Origin: Sphingobacteriaceae bacterium
GTDB lineage: Bacteria; Bacteroidota; Bacteroidia; UBA7662
Assembly (NCBI GenBank): GCA_030682795.1
Contig: JAUXNJ010000040.1
Span: 124,001-188,000, forward strand
Direction: 5' to 3'
DNA: 64,000 bases
In this document: positions 25,495 to 38,641 of the stretch, in pieces
Numbering within the stretch: the first letter of the stretch is position 1
Layout of the letters: each line of letters starts with the position of its first letter
Translations under genes and position numbers: made by a program
The notes under the pieces: generated by a model
The model's input: the letters and a program-made list of their open reading frames with translations, nothing else
Databases searched by the model: none
Told to the model about the DNA's origin: nothing

Positions 25495-27837
25495 TCAAAA
25501 CACCCAACTCGCCACCGCCTGTATGTTGCGACCCGGCTCGGGCAGGTTGAGCAGGCGGTAGCGACTCATGTGGTTGAGGTAACGCACATTGAGTAGGTTT
25601 TGGGCCATCAGCCGTACTTCGAGCTGCTGTTTGCCGGCTTTGAAGTTGCCGCCGACTTGCACATTGAGCAGTTGGTAGGCGGGTGTGGGCTCTTCGTTGC
25701 GATCTACCCGCGTTTGGGCCGCTACCCAGCGCCAGTCGAGGCCGATAAAGGGCTGCTGCACCCACTTAGGACTTCTTTCTAAGCTGTATTCCACTTCCCA
25801 AGTCACACTTCCGGGCGAAGTCCAGGGCAAGGGCACCCCCGTATCCAGGTTCTTCATCCACACATACTCGCCCAACAAAGCCAGGTGGAGGTTGTGCAGC
25901 AAGTGGTATTCGAGTTGGAGCTCGGTGCCGGTATGCACCACGCTGCCCTGACTGTACAAAAATATCTGTCCGCCTTCGGGCAAAAAGGTAAACTGCCCAG
26001 TGGGGCGGAGGTAGATGTAGTTGCTGAAGTAGTTGAAATACGGACTCAGCTTAAACTCCCAGCGCGATTTGCGGTAGTTGAGGGCTAAATCGAGTTGCCA
26101 GCCGCGCTCAGCATCGAGGGTGCTGTCGCCCACCTCGTGCCTAAAGCTGCCGTGGTGCACGCCATTGCTGGTGAGCTCGGGTACGGTAGGCAGCCTAAAG
26201 CTGCTCCCCAGGTTGACTTTGAGGTTGAAGTCGGGTTTCGGCATCCAGCTCAAGCCCACAGCCCCCGATCCGTTATGGAAGAAACGGTCGATTTGTGGGG
26301 CCCGCTGCCGGTCAATCCACTCGCCAGCCACAATCAAACTTTCCCAGTAACGCTCGCTTTGCAACCGACCAATGTCGTAACGCGCGCCGGCACTGGCAAA
26401 CAAGCGCGGCCGCAGTTGCCATTGTAACAAGGCAAAAACACCCGATTGCAAGGCACTGTAATTGGGCACCAAAAACTCAAATCCCGAAATACGATTCTGC
26501 TGGTATTGTCCGCTCGCCCCCAAAATGAGGTTGCGCGCCGTGTCTATTTTGATGTGATAGCGGGCGTTGTAACTCCAGGTGCCGAGGTCCATGCCGTGCG
26601 CTACATTGTTGCTGCTGTCTAAAAAAGGCCGGCCGTGGGCGTGGGGCAGCGACAACTCCCGCCGCTCGTTGAGCTGGTAGCCGAGGTCGAGCTCTAGCCA
26701 ATTGCTGCCCAAAATTACACTGCTGTTGCTCGATACTTTGTAGTGGCGAATCGACTGACTAGGCAAGGCGATGTTACGCCGGTTGCCATCGTTCACCACC
26801 CGGTAGCCCAGCGGACGCCCCATGGCGCCCGGGAAAAAGCCGATTTGTTGGTCGAACCTGCTGAAGTTCACATGGCTGTAGCCCCATTTTTTGTTCACGC
26901 CCACCGAGCCGCTGAGGTGCAACTCTTCGCCGGCGGTGTTTTCGAGGCGACCGTCGGGAATCGGGATCTTGAAGCGGTTGTAAGTAAAAGTATCGGCCGG
27001 CAAGGTGTAGTCGCCATAACTGTGCGCCGTGGCCCGCAGCCGGTACACCAAGCCGCTGCGGTTGTGGCCTTGCACCGCCGCCGAGCTGCCGATGTGCTGG
27101 TTCACGCTGCGCCCAAGCAGGGTCACGGTGCCTTCTACTTTGTCTTCGGCGGGAAAAAGTCGCGGTTTGATTTGCAACACCCCCGCCATGGCATCGGAGC
27201 CGTAGAGGAGGGAAGCGGGACCCTTCAAAATCTCTACCCTGCCCACGTTAAATTGGTCTATTTCGAGGCCGTGGTCAATGCCCCACTGCTGTCCTTCTTG
27301 TTTGATGCCGTTTTCGGTGACTGCCACGCGGTTGAAACTCAGTCCCCGAATCACGGGTTTCGACACTCCAATGCCGGTATTGATGGTTTGGATGCCCGGC
27401 AGCCGCTCTAAACTCTGCATCAGGGTTTGTCCCGCGTACTTGCGCAACTGCTCCTCGCTCACCACCACGGTGCTTTGTGTTTGCTGTTGCTCATTGGTTT
27501 TGGTGAGGTCGTTTTCTATCAAAACCTCCCGCAGCTCCAAGCTCGAGGCCTTTAAAACCACCCGCAGCACTTCGTTTTGGTGCAACCGCACGTTCACGCT
27601 CTGCGCTTCATAGCCTAAAAACTGGATGTGGAGGTGGTAATCGCCCTTTTTGAGTCCTTCAAAGCTAAATTTGCCTTGGGCATCGGTAATCCTGCCGCGC
27701 TGTATCTCATGCACCAATACACTGGCACCTACCACGGGCTGCTGCTGGGCGTCGAGCACTTGGCCGCGTAGACTAAACTGCGCCCAGGCCCCGAAAGGAC
27801 TAAACACCAGTAGAAAGTAAAAAAGCAGGACGCGCAT
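25495..27837 (-). CDS. TonB-dependent outer membrane receptor
   Basis: This 780-residue receptor has a signal peptide (MRVLLFYFLLVFSPFGAWAQ) and a carboxypeptidase-regulatory-like domain (residues about 22-100: GQVLDAQQQPVVGASVLVHE). Next come a plug domain (VVVSEEQLRKYAGQTLMQSL to VEILKGPASLLYGSDAMAGV) and a 22-strand barrel ending in an aromatic residue (VASWVF). The barrel contains SNGVHHGSFRHEVGD, which resembles the histidine-bearing segment of ZnuD-type zinc receptors. A metal or metal-chelate substrate is therefore plausible but unproven. The ATG at 27837 is preferred to an in-frame GTG three codons earlier. No SusD gene is adjacent. Confidence 0.92.
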   Translation of the reverse strand: MRVLLFYFLLVFSPFGAWAQFSLRGQVLDAQQQPVVGASVLVHEIQRGRITDAQGKFSFEGLKKGDYHLHIQFLGYEAQSVNVRLHQNEVLRVVLKASSLELREVLIENDLTKTNEQQQTQSTVVVSEEQLRKYAGQTLMQSLERLPGIQTINTGIGVSKPVIRGLSFNRVAVTENGIKQEGQQWGIDHGLEIDQFNVGRVEILKGPASLLYGSDAMAGVLQIKPRLFPAEDKVEGTVTLLGRSVNQHIGSSAAVQGHNRSGLVYRLRATAHSYGDYTLPADTFTYNRFKIPIPDGRLENTAGEELHLSGSVGVNKKWGYSHVNFSRFDQQIGFFPGAMGRPLGYRVVNDGNRRNIALPSQSIRHYKVSSNSSVILGSNWLELDLGYQLNERRELSLPHAHGRPFLDSSNNVAHGMDLGTWSYNARYHIKIDTARNLILGASGQYQQNRISGFEFLVPNYSALQSGVFALLQWQLRPRLFASAGARYDIGRLQSERYWESLIVAGEWIDRQRAPQIDRFFHNGSGAVGLSWMPKPDFNLKVNLGSSFRLPTVPELTSNGVHHGSFRHEVGDSTLDAERGWQLDLALNYRKSRWEFKLSPYFNYFSNYIYLRPTGQFTFLPEGGQIFLYSQGSVVHTGTELQLEYHLLHNLHLALLGEYVWMKNLDTGVPLPWTSPGSVTWEVEYSLERSPKWVQQPFIGLDWRWVAAQTRVDRNEEPTPAYQLLNVQVGGNFKAGKQQLEVRLMAQNLLNVRYLNHMSRYRLLNLPEPGRNIQAVASWVF

Positions 27838-27963
27838 TTGCAACACAATTGCAAAACTACATTTTTTTCGTCGCGCTGGTTCCCTTTTTTAGCGCGTTAA
27901 CCCGCTTTGTCCCGACCATTTGCTAAATATTTGTTAAAAACGGATGGTTTTTTGAATAGTACC

Positions 27964-28019: not shown

Positions 28020-28370
28020 ATGAATGCAGAAAATACATCCGTCCAAATGCGCAAAGGCATCCTCGAATACGGGATCCTGCTCGTAATAGCGAGGGGAGAG
28101 GTGTACACCTCCGACCTCATCGAGGAACTCAAAGCCGCACGCATCATCGTGGTGGAAGGCACCCTCTACCCGCTGCTCAACCGCTTGCAGAAGGTGGGAC
28201 TGCTCGCCTACACCTGGAAAGAGTCGCCCTCCGGCCCACCGCGCAAATATTACCGCCTTACCGACGAAGGCAGCGCCTTCCTCCAAAGTTTACACGCCAC
28301 CTGGCAAGAGCTCACTGGCTCCATCAACAGCATCTTAAACAAAACCAATCAAACCAACAGTCATGAATAA
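28020..28370 (+). CDS. PadR family transcriptional regulator
   Basis: This 116-residue protein has the PadR winged helix (MRKGILEYGILLVIARGEVY, then VEGTLYPLLNRLQKVGLLAY and PRKYYRLTDEG). It has a short C-terminal dimerisation helix. The ATG at 28020 matches the family length; an upstream in-frame codon would overlap the promoter. The gene overlaps the PspC gene by 8 bases. PadR-PspC pairs are a recurring Bacteroidota arrangement in which the regulator probably controls its own operon in response to envelope stress or small molecules (inference). Confidence 0.93.
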   Translation: MNAENTSVQMRKGILEYGILLVIARGEVYTSDLIEELKAARIIVVEGTLYPLLNRLQKVGLLAYTWKESPSGPPRKYYRLTDEGSAFLQSLHATWQELTGSINSILNKTNQTNSHE

Positions 28371-30120
28371 AACGGTCACCTTTAACCTGAACGGTCTCGT
28401 TTTCACCATTGAAGAAGACGGATACGAAGCCTTGCGCATTTACCTCGAGGCCGTGCAACATTACCTCGATAAGCTCGAAGAAGGGCGTGAAATTTTGGTA
28501 GAAGTAGAAGCCCGCATCGCCGAAAAATTCAAAAACGCCCTGGGAAGCGAACGCTATGTGCTGCTACTCAGCGATGTGGAGCAGGTGAAGGCCGAAATGG
28601 GTAGTCCCGAGCAGTTTCAAGAGCTCGAAAGCGAGGAGGAAGCCGCCGAAGCCACCTTTGAGCAAGCCCCGCAACCCGAACCCCTCCAGCGCAACCTCTA
28701 CCGCAGCAAGCAAAACAAAATGCTCGGTGGCGTGGCCTCCGGTTTGGCCGCCCATTTACAAGTAGATGTGGTGGTGGTGCGCCTGCTGTTCATCCTCTCG
28801 GTGTTTTTGTTCGCCGGTTACGGACTCATCATCTACCTCATTTTGTGGGTCACCGTGCCCATGAACGAGCAATTATTGCTCAGCCAAAAGGCTGGTGAAG
28901 CCGCACCCGAGAAATCGAAACGCCTGTACCGCAACCGCGACAATAAAGTGCTAGCGGGCGTGAGCTCCGGACTCGCCGCCTACCTGCGCATCGACCCCGT
29001 AATTGTGCGGGTGCTCTTCATCATCGCCTTGTTCTGGGGCGGCTTTGGACTGCTGGCTTATGTTGTGCTGTGGATAGCCACCCCCGAGGCCAAAACCCTG
29101 GCTCAGAAGGTAGAAATGGAAGGCGAAAAGCCCAACCTCGCCAACCTGAGCAAGGCTGGTCAGCGCAAAAACGACGACCCAAACGAGCAAGGCCTCCTCA
29201 ACCGCCTCTTGCGCTTTCCCTTTGAAGTACTAAGAGTGCTGTTTGAAGCCCTCAAAAGCGTGTTCAAAGCCTTTTTTGGGGTAGCCCGCATTTTCATCGG
29301 CGCTTTTATCCTCTTTGTAGCGGCTGTGTTTTTATTCGGCTACGGCATCAGCATGGGCTCGGCCTTTGGCGTGTACTTTGGTGCCATCCCCGCCAAATTG
29401 CCCTTTCCCATCGACGCCCTCAGCGGCAGCGTGGGCAGTGACGTGGCCATCCTGTTTTTAGCCGCTGGCTTTTTGCTGATTCCCATTTTATTTGCCCTTT
29501 TTGCTGGCGTCCGCATCCTGTTTAACCGCAGTATTTTCAGTCGCCAGCTGCTCTTCATCGGCGCTGGTACTTGGCTCGTGCTGGCCCTGGCCCTCTTACT
29601 CATGGGCATCCGCACCGCTACTTTTTTCCAAGAAGAAGGCAACTTTATACATACCCACGAGCTGGTATTGGCCGAGAAGGGATTGTTACTGGTAGATAGG
29701 CAATCAGATGAAAACAATATGTTTCAGCCTGCCACCTTGCGCATCCTAGCGCATAAAGAAAAGGGTGTTCGGCTGCAGGAGTTCATCGAGTCGCGGGGCA
29801 AAGATGCCGAAGAAGCCAACGTATGGGCCAGCATGGCGCAGTATGGCTACAGTCAGCCCACCGACACCAGTTTGCTGCTCAACCGCAAGCTCAAGCTGTA
29901 TCCAGGCGCGCGTTTCCGTGCCCAAGAAGGGCGCTTTGAGCTCTATGTACAAGAAGGCCGCCTCATTCGCCTGAGCCGGGAGGCCGCCCATATGCTCGAT
30001 TATTACAAGCACTCACATGAAATGCTGCGCAGCAAGCAAGACTTCTTCACCGTAAAAGTCACGCAAGACGGACTCGAGTGTGTGGATTGTGTGTATGAAG
30101 AAGAAGGGAGTGATTTGTGA
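28363..30120 (+). CDS. PspC-domain membrane protein with two PspC repeats
   Basis: This 585-residue membrane protein starts with a helical cytosolic region (residues 1-100, EEDGYEALRIYLEAVQHYLD). Two PspC domains follow (about 108-168 and 187-245), each with the family line K.LGGVASGLA/KVLAGVSSGLAAYL and a hydrophobic pair ending in LWVTVP or LWIATP. Four more membrane helices (about 300-420) follow, and a C-terminal soluble domain. PspC proteins take part in envelope-stress signalling. The last three codons and the stop (S-D-L-stop) lie in sequence that already resembles the AATCGC-type repeat beginning here, so the natural 3' end may have been replaced. Confidence 0.88.
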   Translation: MNKTVTFNLNGLVFTIEEDGYEALRIYLEAVQHYLDKLEEGREILVEVEARIAEKFKNALGSERYVLLLSDVEQVKAEMGSPEQFQELESEEEAAEATFEQAPQPEPLQRNLYRSKQNKMLGGVASGLAAHLQVDVVVVRLLFILSVFLFAGYGLIIYLILWVTVPMNEQLLLSQKAGEAAPEKSKRLYRNRDNKVLAGVSSGLAAYLRIDPVIVRVLFIIALFWGGFGLLAYVVLWIATPEAKTLAQKVEMEGEKPNLANLSKAGQRKNDDPNEQGLLNRLLRFPFEVLRVLFEALKSVFKAFFGVARIFIGAFILFVAAVFLFGYGISMGSAFGVYFGAIPAKLPFPIDALSGSVGSDVAILFLAAGFLLIPILFALFAGVRILFNRSIFSRQLLFIGAGTWLVLALALLLMGIRTATFFQEEGNFIHTHELVLAEKGLLLVDRQSDENNMFQPATLRILAHKEKGVRLQEFIESRGKDAEEANVWASMAQYGYSQPTDTSLLLNRKLKLYPGARFRAQEGRFELYVQEGRLIRLSREAAHMLDYYKHSHEMLRSKQDFFTVKVTQDGLECVDCVYEEEGSDL

Positions 30121-30287
30121 TTGGCGATTGGCGAGGGCGATTGGCGATTTGGGATTAATTCCCAAATGCCCCGGTCCTTGAGCGCTGCGATACTTTACTT
30201 CCTTCGGTCCCTGAGCGCTGCGACAGCATCAGTCGAAGGGTGGTCCCTGAGGTTCTCGAAGCTGGTCCCTGAGGTTCGCGAAGGGAA
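30108..30287. repeat. Intergenic repeats: AATCGC-type array (part A) and CCCTGAG-type units
   Basis: From the last codons of the PspC gene, words such as GTGATTTG, TGATTGGCGATTGGCGA and GATTTGGGATT form the A-type array (to about 30156). After it, four units of the type GGTCCCTGAG...TCGAAGGG (or GAGCGCTGCGA) follow at 30170-30287. Related arrays occur at 33408-34027, 36877-37112, 38497-38641 and 45443-45925. The rest of the gap to 30447 holds nothing that I recognise. Confidence 0.75.
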
Positions 30288-30447
30288 GATGTGCGAATTG
30301 TCTTTGCCACGAATAGAACATTGCCGCCACGTTTTACAGTTACGTCGGCTGTTGCATAAGTTTCAATTGGTTCAAGGGTTGTTTTCTTGGCTTAACGGCT
30401 ATTTACTGTGTAAGAATTGTATTCGATTCTAAAACTTTCTAGCCCTT

Positions 30448-30822
30448 TTAGTTGCCAAGTAGCCAGTTAAATACATTTAAATGTTTTACTCCACCTCTAT
30501 TTTGAGTAAAGGAGTCGGTAGTCAGGAGAAATTTGGGATAATTATCAAGGATGTTTTCTAAAGCACTAAATTCGCGTTCCACGGTGCTTTCGCTGTTTAA
30601 CTGCCAGGCAACTTGATAGTACTCCAATTCACCTCGATTGGTTTTGCAAATAAAGTCTATTTCAAAATTACGAGCGCATCCCGTCCATACTTTGTACCCT
30701 CTGCGAAGCAATTCGAGAAAAACTATATTTTCAAGTAAATGACCTCGGTCTGCTGTACGGTCTTTGTCCTTATAAGCCAGGAGCTTACTGAGATATCCCT
30801 CGCGTTGAATAAATGGACTCAT
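30448..30822 (-). pseudogene. C-terminal remnant of a DUF4143 AAA ATPase gene
   Basis: The 124 codons encode the C-terminal DUF4143 part of an AAA ATPase: DRGHLLENIVFLELLRRGYKVW, then EIDFICKTNRGELEYYQVAW and the end LKHLNVFNWLLG-like. The family normally has about 380-430 residues with a P-loop domain first. Here about 270 residues are missing and nothing upstream encodes them. The remnant begins directly next to a long perfect inverted repeat (30838-30884). The nuclease-like pattern E-x-D, E-x-x-x-V is intact, but without the ATPase part the protein is unlikely to work. Confidence 0.8.
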
Positions 30823-30837
30823 AATGCTAAGTTCATT

Positions 30838-30884
30838 GTTAAATCATTAAAACTTGCAGTTTTTACAAGTTTTAATGATTTAAC
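30838..30884. repeat. Perfect 19-bp inverted repeat
   Basis: GTTAAATCATTAAAACTTG (30838-30856) is followed by a 9-base loop and its exact reverse complement (30866-30884). The stem has no mismatch, is AT-rich and does not end in a typical T run. It sits 16 bases from the start of the DUF4143 remnant. It could be an operator, a transcript hairpin or the end of an inserted element. Confidence 0.85.
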
Positions 30885-30950
30885 ATTAGTCGTTTTTAGT
30901 TTTAGGGAAATTGTCCATCTTTCGAGCGAGTAAAATCGCTCACATCGCAA

Positions 30951-32075
30951 CTACCACCGCCTAAACCAACCCTTCTTCCAAAACAGCCCTAATTGAAACA
31001 GTGCAATGAGCACCATCACTGTCACTACCGATACGTAACCGATAGGAGAGTAGAGCTCGGGCATGTTGAGCGGCATGGCTTCTCCATTATCGCTTTCGCG
31101 TACAAAATTCATCCCGTAAACGCCAGCAATAAAACTCAACGGGATAAAAATGGCCGATACCATGGTAAGCACTTTCATGATTTCGTTCATGTAATTGTTT
31201 ACAGCCGTATTGTACAAATCGAGCAGGTTGGCGCTGATTTCGCGGTAGTTTTCGGCATGGTCCATGAGGCTCACCACGTGGTCGTAGAGGTCGCGGAGGT
31301 AGATTTTGATATCGTCCTGACTGTTGAGGTGGTCGTTGCGCAGCAAATTATTGGCCAGCTCGCGGGTAGGCCACACAATGCGGCGGATGGCGAGCAGGTC
31401 GTGCTTGAGGTGCATGATTTGGTCGCGGTGCTCGCGCCTCGGCTTGGTGAGCAGCAGGTTTTCGAGCTTTTCCATGCGCTCGCCCAGGTCGTTGAGCACC
31501 AAAAAATAGTGATCCACCACGGCATCGAGCAGGGCATAGGCCAGATACTCCGATTTGCGTTTGCGAATGGGCATCATTTCGTTGCGCAGGCGGTTGCGCA
31601 CCGGTTCGAGCACGTCTTCATAGGTTTCCTGGATGGTGATGAGGGTGTTGCCGAGTACAAAAAACGACAGTTGGTCGTTTACCACCTGCTGCTGGCTATC
31701 CAAATACAACATCCGCGACACCATAAACAAATGCCCAAACTGCTCCTCCACCTTAGGTTGCTGGCGAGAGGCAATGTCTTCGAGCTCCAAGGGGTGGATG
31801 CCGAAATCGCGGTCGAGCCAGTCGAACAGCTCCGGGTTTTGTAGTCCCCGCACATCTATCCAACGGGTAAAAGCAGCCGCTGGTGCTGGTCTGCTGCGGG
31901 CTTCGGCTACGTCCACCGGCCCCAATTCCTCCAAAGCATCGGCATTAAAGTGATATTCGTAAACTTGAGTAGGTAAGGCATCTTGGGGAATAAAAATGCT
32001 GCCCGGTTTGGCCCCGAGTTTGGCTTTATTGTAGCGGAAATACTTGAGTTTGTTTTGAACGGCCGTTGCTTTCAT
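30951..32075 (-). CDS. corA: CorA family magnesium/cobalt channel
   Basis: This 374-residue protein has the CorA layout: an N-terminal alpha/beta funnel domain, a long coiled stalk helix (about 230-305) and two membrane helices at the C-terminus. The hallmark YGMNF lies after the first helix (MVSAIFIPLSFIAGVYGMNF), and the protein ends with the basic WKKGWFRRW. It forms pentamers that conduct Mg2+, Co2+ or Ni2+. The ATG at 32075 is chosen; an earlier codon adds five residues. It is a single gene divergent from the next one. Confidence 0.96.
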   Translation of the reverse strand: MKATAVQNKLKYFRYNKAKLGAKPGSIFIPQDALPTQVYEYHFNADALEELGPVDVAEARSRPAPAAAFTRWIDVRGLQNPELFDWLDRDFGIHPLELEDIASRQQPKVEEQFGHLFMVSRMLYLDSQQQVVNDQLSFFVLGNTLITIQETYEDVLEPVRNRLRNEMMPIRKRKSEYLAYALLDAVVDHYFLVLNDLGERMEKLENLLLTKPRREHRDQIMHLKHDLLAIRRIVWPTRELANNLLRNDHLNSQDDIKIYLRDLYDHVVSLMDHAENYREISANLLDLYNTAVNNYMNEIMKVLTMVSAIFIPLSFIAGVYGMNFVRESDNGEAMPLNMPELYSPIGYVSVVTVMVLIALFQLGLFWKKGWFRRW

Positions 32076-32137
32076 GCACCAAAGTAACAAAAATGTTGTT
32101 ATTAACGTTGTGACTTCTCAATCGTGTGCTCATCCCT

Positions 32138-36883: not shown

Positions 36884-37112
36884 TTTCGATTGGCGATTAG
36901 TGATTTGCGATTTCGATTAGCGATTTCCGATTTGGTGATAAAACACATAATAAGCCTAAAAAATGCATATTCTGGAACATTTTATTATACGCCAGAGCCT
37001 GTGCTGTCTGAAAAGTGAGCGCAGCGAACGCTCTGATGTCTGAAAAGCGAGCGCAGCGAGCGGTCTGAAAAGCGAAGCGGTCTATTCCGGTCACTGAGGT
37101 GCTCGAAGGGCC
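36877..37112 (+). repeat. Composite intergenic repeat, copy 3 (A array, linker, B units)
   Basis: Starting at the stop codon of the oxidase gene, an A array (TTTCGATTGGCGATTAG...) runs to about 36937. A linker shares GATTTCCGATTTGGTG with copy 1 and holds ATACGCCAGAGCCTG (36989-37003). Three B units follow (GAAAAGcGAGCGCAGCGAGC; 37010-37081), and a CCGGTCACTGAGG...TCGAAGGG unit closes the element (37087-37110). Confidence 0.8.
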
Positions 37113-38499: not shown

Positions 38500-38641
38500 G
38501 GGATGAGCGATTTCGATTAGCGATTTGCGATTTCGATTAGCGATTTGCGATTTCGATTTGCGATTTCTGATTTTTTACTCCGGTCCCTGAGCGCTGCGAC
38601 AGCAGCAGTCGAAGGGCGGTCCCTGAGGTAGTCGAAGGGAA
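38497..38641 (+). repeat. A array and CCCTGAG-type units after the ATPase gene
   Basis: From the TGA stop codon, GATTTCGATTAGCGATTTGC words run to about 38570. Two CCCTGAG-type units follow (38580-38641: CGGTCCCTGAGCGCTGCGAC and GGTCCCTGAGG...TCGAAGGG). No linker or B unit is present in this copy. Confidence 0.75.

What the first reader, a model, noticed from the sequence alone, without database searches (positions are those of the whole stretch)
30838..30884. Perfect 19-bp inverted repeat next to a DUF4143 gene remnant
GTTAAATCATTAAAACTTG and its exact complement flank a 9-base loop, with no mismatch in an AT-rich stretch where drift should be fast. It sits 16 bases from the point where the DUF4143 reading starts, and the ATPase half of that gene is gone. 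The palindrome may mark the break point of a deletion, be an end of an inserted element, or be the counterpart of the iterated repeat at the other DUF4143 gene.
Basis: partly seen in the sequence, partly recalled or inferred. Interest (0 to 1): 0.5.

Follow-up and report, generated by a model that had tools for sequence, protein, structure and literature searches.

The report
Self-operator palindrome of a defence-candidate gene
The perfect palindrome is a conserved switch-like site in front of a very common but little-studied bacterial defence-candidate gene, apparently read by that gene's own protein; here the gene has lost its core and the site is left behind, and in some related genomes the same palindrome also marks the edges where such genes come and go.

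Summary
The palindrome is real: 20-bp arms (30837-30856 / 30866-30885), 9-nt loop, single copy in the genome. It is not a deletion break point: the DUF4143 'remnant' keeps its own N-terminus, and an internal in-frame deletion of about 283 codons removed the ATPase and winged helix. The palindrome lies in the original upstream region: a model built here finds it before the gene in 78 of 80 relatives (PDC-S01, AAA_14-DUF4143; 33 of 35 not used for building), centre 36-40 nt before ATG in 74 of 81, with a TAnnTTTG promoter box in between in 59 of 81. Several base pairs change together in both arms; the protein columns that best predict them include residues 240, 255 and 256 of the winged helix, but few independent changes exist. 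Best reading: an operator bound by the gene's own product, orphaned in this window. In a wider survey a start-proximal palindrome or 32-bp iterated repeat occurs at 62 of 87 DUF4143 genes and 17 of 205 neighbour genes. Unexpectedly, 11 of 79 relatives have a second copy just after the stop codon, and two loci show a one-palindrome empty state beside a two-palindrome occupied state, so the palindrome can also bound gene gain or loss.

The parts
30837..30885 (.). Palindrome: arms 30837-30856 and 30866-30885, 9-nt loop; the 41-bp core modelled here is 30841-30881, centre 30861
   Evidence: covariance model 62.8 bits, E 1.6e-10 in the window; the window row is one of the 46 that built the model
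30448..30822 (-). Internally deleted PDC-S01 (AAA_14-DUF4143) gene, 124 aa, in frame
   Evidence: PADLOC PDC-S01 profile E 7.5e-35 over residues 20-123; Pfam DUF4143 24.0 bits, under the 28.1 cut-off
30760..30822 (-). Retained N-terminal 21 codons (MSPFIQREGYLSKLLAYKDKD), matching the start of full-length relatives
   Evidence: family consensus
30451..30765 (-). Retained C-terminal part, aligned to residues 305-409 of the 414-aa relative L015; about residues 22-304 (ATPase, winged helix) are missing
   Evidence: tblastn 67.6% identity; domain limits from the model
30827..30834 (-). Position of the family's -7-like box (TAnnTTTG in most relatives); here GAACTTAG
   Evidence: by distance from the palindrome centre
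30857..30859 (-). Position of a possible -33 TTG in relatives (centre +2 to +4); here CTG
   Evidence: inferred
30951..32090 (-). corA, upstream neighbour; in G005 (same genus) a pspC-like gene follows corA without this insert
28363..30120 (+). PspC-domain gene, convergent neighbour

Best explanation
The palindrome is the self-operator of a subfamily of PDC-S01 genes (AAA_14 ATPase + winged helix + DUF4143, a PD-(D/E)XK-like domain). Shown here: it is conserved at a nearly fixed distance before the start codon, a promoter-like box lies between it and the start codon, and several of its base pairs change together in both arms. Suggested, not proved: these base pairs are read by the winged helix of the encoded protein. 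Inferred: a dimer or larger oligomer of the protein binds the two half sites over the promoter and represses its own, nearly leaderless, transcription, and a signal acting on the ATPase relieves this. In the window an internal in-frame deletion removed the ATPase and the winged helix but left the operator, the start codon and the C-terminal domain, so the operator has lost its reader; no second member of this subfamily was found in the genome.
For: The model hits 78 of 80 loci at E<=0.1, 45 of which built it; 33 of the 35 others hit; two further relatives found separately, L130 and L131, also hit. Centre-to-ATG distance 36-40 in 74 of 81. TAnnTTTG right of the palindrome in 59 of 81 (71 relaxed), on the mirrored left side in 1 of 81, so the palindrome should not be in the gene's own transcript. 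Arms covary: d13 81/81 paired (48.1 expected if independent), d12 78/81 (62.7), d16 77/81 (47.2); 10 of 16 pairs have double changes against 5.1 in shuffles and at most 2 when slid. The columns most informative on d12, d13, d16 are 240, 255 (tied with 80) and 256; on a null evolving the trait along a tree built without residues 219-295, these residues reach the observed value in 0 of 1500, 0 of 132 and 5 of 1500 simulations. The AlphaFold model (pLDDT 84.8) puts them at the starts of helices 239-248 and 255-267 of a winged helix. Family-wide: inverted repeat >=12 or 31-33-bp direct repeat >=9 in 62 of 87 DUF4143 genes against 17 of 205 neighbour genes; 19 of 25 strong direct repeats have offset 32-33, against 1 of 11 in controls.
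Against: No binding or expression data. The three residues were picked because they came out on top, so their per-residue P values are post hoc; the fair test, best column over all columns, is not convincing (P 0.07, 0.045, 0.18). Independent sister pairs are few: d12 1 on well-supported branches (4 on the best tree), d13 1 (2), d16 5 (7) with residue 256 unchanged in 4.2 of 5 on average. Copies exist with no PDC-S01 gene detected nearby (L229-L231, L233-L236, L277, L278; L236 is at a contig edge), and a copy follows the stop codon in 11 of 79; a pure operator explains neither. L046 and L091 are missed by the model, and more distant relatives in the order (L012, L014) do not carry it. In the wider survey 20 of 87 genes have neither feature at the loosest threshold, and only 7 of 13 sequence clusters have a member with it. 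Complementarity running into non-conserved distal arms (L036, L092, 26 bp) suggests cruciforms or template-switch repair besides dimer recognition.
Confidence: 0.72

Rival explanations
1. The palindrome is chiefly an exchange boundary: genes bounded by palindromes are inserted at, or lost from, a single palindrome, in a cassette-like way.
For: Second copy 3-40 nt after the stop codon in 11 of 79, 0 of 395 control pieces. Empty L229 has one palindrome; occupied L062 has two with the gene between (left 300 nt 85.6%, right 300 nt 97.3% identical). Second locus: L277 (one palindrome) against L233 (two, 989 nt between; left 88.3%, right 79.6%). Beside the same right palindrome and downstream gene, L032/L033 hold PDC-S01 and L234 holds PDC-S02.
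Against: 68 of 79 genes, and the window, have no right-hand copy. Passive recombination between 41-bp direct repeats could make the one-palindrome states. Over 300 nt the left flanks of L032/L033, L234 and L278 do not match those of L277/L233; L059's right and L063's left flank do not match L229. In L059, L062 and L063 about 20 nt left of each palindrome are also alike, so the left edge is not exactly the palindrome. Position before the promoter is not explained by this alone.
Confidence: 0.3
2. An RNA hairpin: a 5' leader structure or a terminator for corA.
For: Strong fold; in the window it lies 65 nt after the corA stop on the same strand; upstream neighbours are co-directional in 50 of 70 testable loci.
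Against: The promoter-like box lies between palindrome and ATG. Stem mismatches: G-T 55, A-C 37, about half of each at d4, so no clear wobble bias. No terminator-like site in 30100-31100; no Rfam family near its cut-off. Distance to ATG is nearly fixed, distance to the upstream gene runs from 20 to 1107 nt.
Confidence: 0.05
3. Deletion break point or repair scar.
For: It lies beside a gene with a large deletion.
Against: Same palindrome at the same place in relatives with the ATPase; junction is inside the ORF.
Confidence: 0.01
4. End of an insertion sequence or MITE.
For: Palindromic, near a broken gene.
Against: Single copy in the genome; the flanking genes identified are corA and a PspC-domain gene.
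Confidence: 0.03

Closest known systems
PDC-S01 candidate defence gene (PADLOC; AAA_14-DUF4143)
   Same: The full-length relative scores 483 bits against model PDLC04787 and the remnant E 7.5e-35. Described as the fourth most common defence across all prokaryotes, ATPase fused to a PD-(D/E)XK-superfamily domain, with validation pending for most PDCs (PMC12988326, passages).
   Different: No operator, palindrome or iterated repeat is described in the passages and listings that I saw. The window copy lacks the ATPase.
RptR, repressor of a restriction-modification defence island
   Same: Repression of its own defence promoter through repeated sites (PMC12255303, passages, one of them from the abstract).
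   Different: RptR is a dedicated repressor with three 9-bp repeats; here the putative effector itself would be the repressor and the site is a 41-bp palindrome.
STAND-type ATPase PABY2304 (2qen) and Cdc6/Orc1 initiators
   Same: Best folds for the model of L015: 2qen E 5.1e-8, Cdc6/Orc1 bound to origin DNA E 2.4e-7.
   Different: TM-scores by query length only 0.45 and 0.33, no sequence match in PDB. The label STAND for 2qen is recalled.
Integron gene cassettes (attC)
   Same: Single gene next to palindromic sites, a state with one site left (recalled comparison).
   Different: Near-perfect 41-bp palindrome found at one or a few loci per genome, not in long arrays; I made no search for an integrase.

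Membership tests
PDC-S01 | Match to a PADLOC PDC-S01 profile | tested here: met
   Relative 483.1 bits; window remnant E 7.5e-35, profile positions 305-408 of 412
PDC-S01 | AAA_14 ATPase domain present in the window copy | tested here: not met
   Only DUF4143 is found in the 124-aa protein, under the cut-off; about residues 22-304 absent. The relative L013 has both domains
PDC-S01 | Protects against phage | not testable with these tools
   -
Autoregulatory operator | Fixed position relative to promoter and start codon | tested here: met
   74 of 81 within 36-40 nt; promoter-like box in 59 of 81
Autoregulatory operator | Site sequence tracks the DNA-contact residues of the product | tested here: inconclusive
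   Per-residue null rejects (0/1500, 0/132, 5/1500) but post hoc; best-column null does not (0.07, 0.045, 0.18); few independent changes
Autoregulatory operator | Protein binds the site and represses | not testable with these tools
   -
Intrinsic terminator | G+C-containing stem followed by a T run | tested here: not met
   0 terminator-like sites in 30100-31100
Structured RNA (Rfam) | Match over a gathering score | tested here: not met
   Six sub-threshold matches, none near its cut-off
Insertion sequence or MITE | Repeated copies in the genome | tested here: not met
   Single copy
Mobile cassette | Occupied and empty states with palindromes at the edges | tested here: met
   L062/L229 and L233/L277, in relatives, not in the window; deletion could also make the empty state
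Mobile cassette | Recombinase or self-mobilisation | not tested
   Would need experiments

The most novel reading that the evidence does not exclude
A palindrome with two jobs: it is the self-operator of a PDC-S01 defence-candidate ATPase and also the attachment boundary of palindrome-bounded single-gene cassettes. The AAA+/winged-helix/PD-(D/E)XK-like protein reads the palindrome and, with host recombination, brings about the gain, loss or exchange of defence genes (PDC-S01, PDC-S02, or nothing) at solo palindromes. The window would be a decayed resident of such a site.
Probability: 0.25. Interest if true: 0.85.

Novelty: new variant of a known kind. Interest (0 to 1): 0.62.

Why it matters
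PDC-S01 is described as one of the most abundant candidate defence genes in prokaryotes, and validation is pending for most such candidates (PMC12988326). A start-proximal self-site that is frequent in the family, with predicted contact residues, gives a direct handle: it says which DNA the protein may bind, allows a mobility-shift and reporter test, and predicts specificity swaps. The occupied/empty loci suggest how such genes may be exchanged between genomes with one-gene precision.

Tried and rejected
Rejected: deletion break point (relatives with the ATPase carry the palindrome, junction inside the ORF). Terminator or known RNA. IS or MITE. RNA leader (promoter-like box downstream of the palindrome, no clear wobble bias). 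Integron array: a 3' motif near the stop codon of some relatives looked attC-like to me, but it has 0-2 matches per genome in 15 genomes, no more than the reversed control pattern.

Led nowhere: plasmid search with the palindrome region (no match); PDB sequence search (none); NCBIfam (none). Viral contigs gave 4 distant relatives; the model has no hit in the stretches held, but L164 holds only 94 nt before its match. A phylum-wide search for more close relatives gave 2 of 395 genomes at E<=1e-130. Alignment A2 was mis-registered for the window row and was not used. The script took all loci as plus-strand, so its output for L003, L006, L008 and L009 was not used.

Rows dropped and choices: one search found 140 relatives and kept 80. 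L035 was left out of the protein alignment because its frame ends after 74 codons, so 79 of 80. Model R1 used 46 of 81 palindromes; 28 of 30 loci had a usable start. The 60 further loci were picked by me by hand down the list, not at random; 87 of 90 loci entered the counts. Several thresholds were tried and none fixed beforehand; all are printed. The 87 genes are not independent (13 clusters at 40% identity). Start codons in the survey are the most upstream ATG, so some are wrong. The 12 'contact positions' were listed after the top residues had been seen. One search ran with stricter filters; could not search the genome of L083.

Full report
Observation. The inverted repeat is real and one pair longer than reported: 30837-30856 and 30866-30885, 20 bp without mismatch, 9-nt loop. 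Its arm occurs nowhere else in the genome at up to 2 mismatches and it folds far better than shuffles. The open reading frame 30448-30822 on the minus strand starts 14 nt away.

The gene. The 124-aa product matches DUF4143 weakly (24.0 bits, cut-off 28.1) and the C-terminal quarter of the PADLOC candidate PDC-S01 (E 7.5e-35). A full-length relative in the same order (L013, 414 aa; the same contig was returned as L015) starts MGTLIKRKNYLQKLLAYKDHD and, after about 283 further residues, continues RTADRGHLLENIVYLELL; the window protein is MSPFIQREGYLSKLLAYKDKD directly followed by RTADRGHLLENIVFLELL. Both ends of the gene are kept and the middle is lost in frame. By the model of L015 (mean pLDDT 84.8) and Pfam the lost part holds the AAA_14 ATPase and a winged helix (helices 219-231, 239-248, 255-267, strands 271-278, 283-293). 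The palindrome is therefore upstream of the original start codon, not at the junction. In G005 of the same genus a pspC-like gene (blastn 63.7% over 956 nt) follows corA after a short gap, so the gene was gained here or lost there; the short non-coding flanks are too diverged to place the edges.

The palindrome in relatives. The best 80 of 140 relatives were kept from the species genome collection. In a simple scan 74 of 81 rows (80 and the window) had an inverted repeat of score 9 or more within 150 nt of the start, at least two of them (L070, L083) a different one. A weight matrix put the element 36-40 nt (centre) before ATG in 74 of 81; its lowest scores were 23.2 (L015) and 24.1 (L091). 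A covariance model of 41 columns from 46 rows hits 78 of 80 loci at E<=0.1, 33 of 35 among those not used for building; L046 and L091 are missed. Consensus: AAATYATYRAAACTTGCA-N5-TGCAAGTTTYRATRATTT. L130 and L131, found separately, have it; the more distant L012 and L014 do not. Right of the palindrome TAnnTTTG stands at +25 to +28 in 59 of 81 (71 relaxed), on the mirrored left side in 1 of 81. That this is the Bacteroidota -7 box, and TTG near +2 to +4 a -33 box, is recalled knowledge. If so, transcription starts near the start codon and the palindrome is not in the message.

Covariation. At d12, d13, d14, d16 and d17 from the centre the two arms change together beyond independence (z 6-9); d19 gives 3.5, d5 2.1, the rest of d3-d11 nothing, d4 even avoids pairing (z -3.4), and beyond d19 the signal is weak. 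On the 46-row alignment 10 of 16 pairs have double changes (5.1 in shuffles, at most 2 when slid). Wobble mismatches show no clear strand bias (55 G-T, 37 A-C, about half of each at d4). This fits a double-stranded operator better than an RNA helix, but long complementary distal arms in a few loci (L036, L092, L044) leave room for cruciforms or template-switch repair.

Who reads it. Among 79 aligned proteins the columns most informative about the base pairs were 240 for d12, 255 (tied with 80) for d13 and 256 for d16. These lie at the first turns of helices 2 and 3 of the winged helix, where such domains commonly touch DNA (established knowledge). A trait evolved at random on a tree built without residues 219-295 reaches the observed information at these residues in 0 of 1500, 0 of 132 and 5 of 1500 simulations; the top column falls among 12 winged-helix positions, listed after the fact, in 4 of 1500, 1 of 132 and 1 of 1500. 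Against: the residues were chosen because they were on top; the best column over all columns gives P 0.07, 0.045 and 0.18; sister-pair tests have little power, and for d16 residue 256 mostly does not differ. I read this as suggestive evidence, strengthened by all three falling on the DNA side of one small domain.

Family rule. In 58 of 119 genomes of the class a DUF4143 gene passes E 1e-15. Of 90 loci examined (30, 60 picked by hand and fetched) 87 entered the counts. An inverted repeat >=12 or a 31-33-bp direct repeat >=9 near the start is present in 62 of 87, and in 17 of 205 neighbour genes; 20 of 87 have neither at the loosest threshold, and 7 of 13 clusters at 40% identity have a member with it. 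Of genes with a strong direct repeat 19 of 25 have an offset of 32 or 33 bp, against 1 of 11 controls; 32 bp is about three turns of DNA. In the window's own genome the full-length DUF4143 genes show 23-bp repeats (L004, the second DUF4143 gene of this window, and L005), a 33-bp repeat (L006), an inverted repeat (L007, a weaker one in L003) and none in L008. Repeats of 21-24 bp are however not enriched in the survey (2 of 87 against 4 of 205).

Unexpected: both ends, solo copies, empty sites. In 11 of 79 loci a second palindrome begins 3-40 nt after the stop codon; scores are either 37 and above or -16.4 and below, and 0 of 395 control pieces score above 0. Model searches in 47 and 33 genomes (one genome, G022, in both) hit 46 and 28 of them. 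I fetched 14 stretches; two were the contigs of L016 and L023 themselves (L226, L227). Of the other 12, L228 has a PDC-S01 gene of 49% identity beside the site, L279 the start of one running off the contig, L232 a C-terminal fragment, and nine stretches with 11 sites have none detected within the stretch (L229-L231, L233 and L234 with two sites each, L235, L236 at a contig edge, L277, L278). L229 is the locus of L062 and L059 (response regulator on one side, DUF4199 gene on the other) with one palindrome and no gene; L062 has the gene between two. Alignments run from each flank into the palindrome, left 85.6% and right 97.3% over 300 nt. The right non-coding flank of L059 (43.6%) and the left flank of L063 (46.5%) do not match L229. 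In L059, L062 and L063 about 20 nt left of each palindrome are also alike, so the repeated unit is longer than the palindrome there. L277 is likewise a one-palindrome state of L233 (left 88.3%, right 79.6%), where 989 nt lie between two palindromes. The same right palindrome and 231-aa gene follow PDC-S01 in L032 and L033 and PDC-S02 (YhcG, DUF1016) in L234; over 300 nt the left flanks of these do not match L277 or L233. L088 has a 16-codon truncated start of a second copy behind its downstream palindrome, L094 a second palindrome with a short gene fragment, L055 a second palindrome followed by a promoter-like stretch. Passive recombination between direct repeats would explain the losses; how two-palindrome states with different genes arise is open.

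Mechanism and status. Most likely: a self-operator, bound by the product's winged helix (suggested), repression (inferred), release by the ATPase state (inferred). Whether one of the six other DUF4143 proteins of this genome could still bind it was not tested. Closest precedent for self-repression of a defence locus through repeated sites is RptR (PMC12255303, passages). PDC-S01 is reported as very common, with validation pending for most PDCs, in PMC12988326 (passages), and as abundant in the rumen in PMC13356809 (passages). Searches for DUF4143 (1 paper), COG1373 (7), PDC-S01 (3), AAA_14 with inverted repeat (0), guilt-by-embedding or PDC-S01 (6), and two of PDC-S01/PDC-S02/palindrom/operator (1,002 papers, of which I saw a listing of 8) showed no description of such an element in what I saw; the library is open-access only, so absence is not proof.

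Noticed in passing
window 30112-30285, 36888-37110, 38515-38639: Both DUF4143 genes of the window have the same two repeat types close by: GGTCCCTGAG..TCGAAGGG units (4 matches in the window, all near these two genes) and GATTNGCGATT tandem repeats (18 matches, also at 33.6-33.8 and 45.6-45.9 kb).
   Followed up: partly
L016, L021, L022, L025, L028, L029, L039, L056, L057, L058, L060, L061, L086, L089, at or just after the stop codon: A conserved 3' motif near AACCACYRGCYAYAACARC: 14 of 80 relatives at 3 mismatches or fewer, 0 of 732 control pieces; none of the 14 has the downstream palindrome. The motif was derived from some of these same loci.
   Followed up: partly
L186, L195, L196, L205, L207, L217, L208 upstream of DUF4143 genes: Iterated direct repeats with a pitch of 32-33 bp, different in sequence.
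   Followed up: partly
L132, L134, L135, L140, L144, L151: Other DUF4143 genes have long palindromes that abut or even include the start codon, several built around GGAATT..AATTCC-like centres.
   Followed up: no
L033 763-1758 and L234 2126-3145: PDC-S02 (YhcG, DUF1016) genes: between two of these palindromes in L234, two genes upstream of the PDC-S01 gene in L033.
   Followed up: partly
L088 3751-3870, L094 1502-1620: Truncated PDC-S01 starts that keep their palindrome; the one in L088 ends after 16 codons, near where the window's deletion begins.
   Followed up: no
L126 (G006): In G006 corA is followed by what reads like the TonB-receptor gene of window 25495-27846, so the region between differs within the genus.
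   Followed up: no
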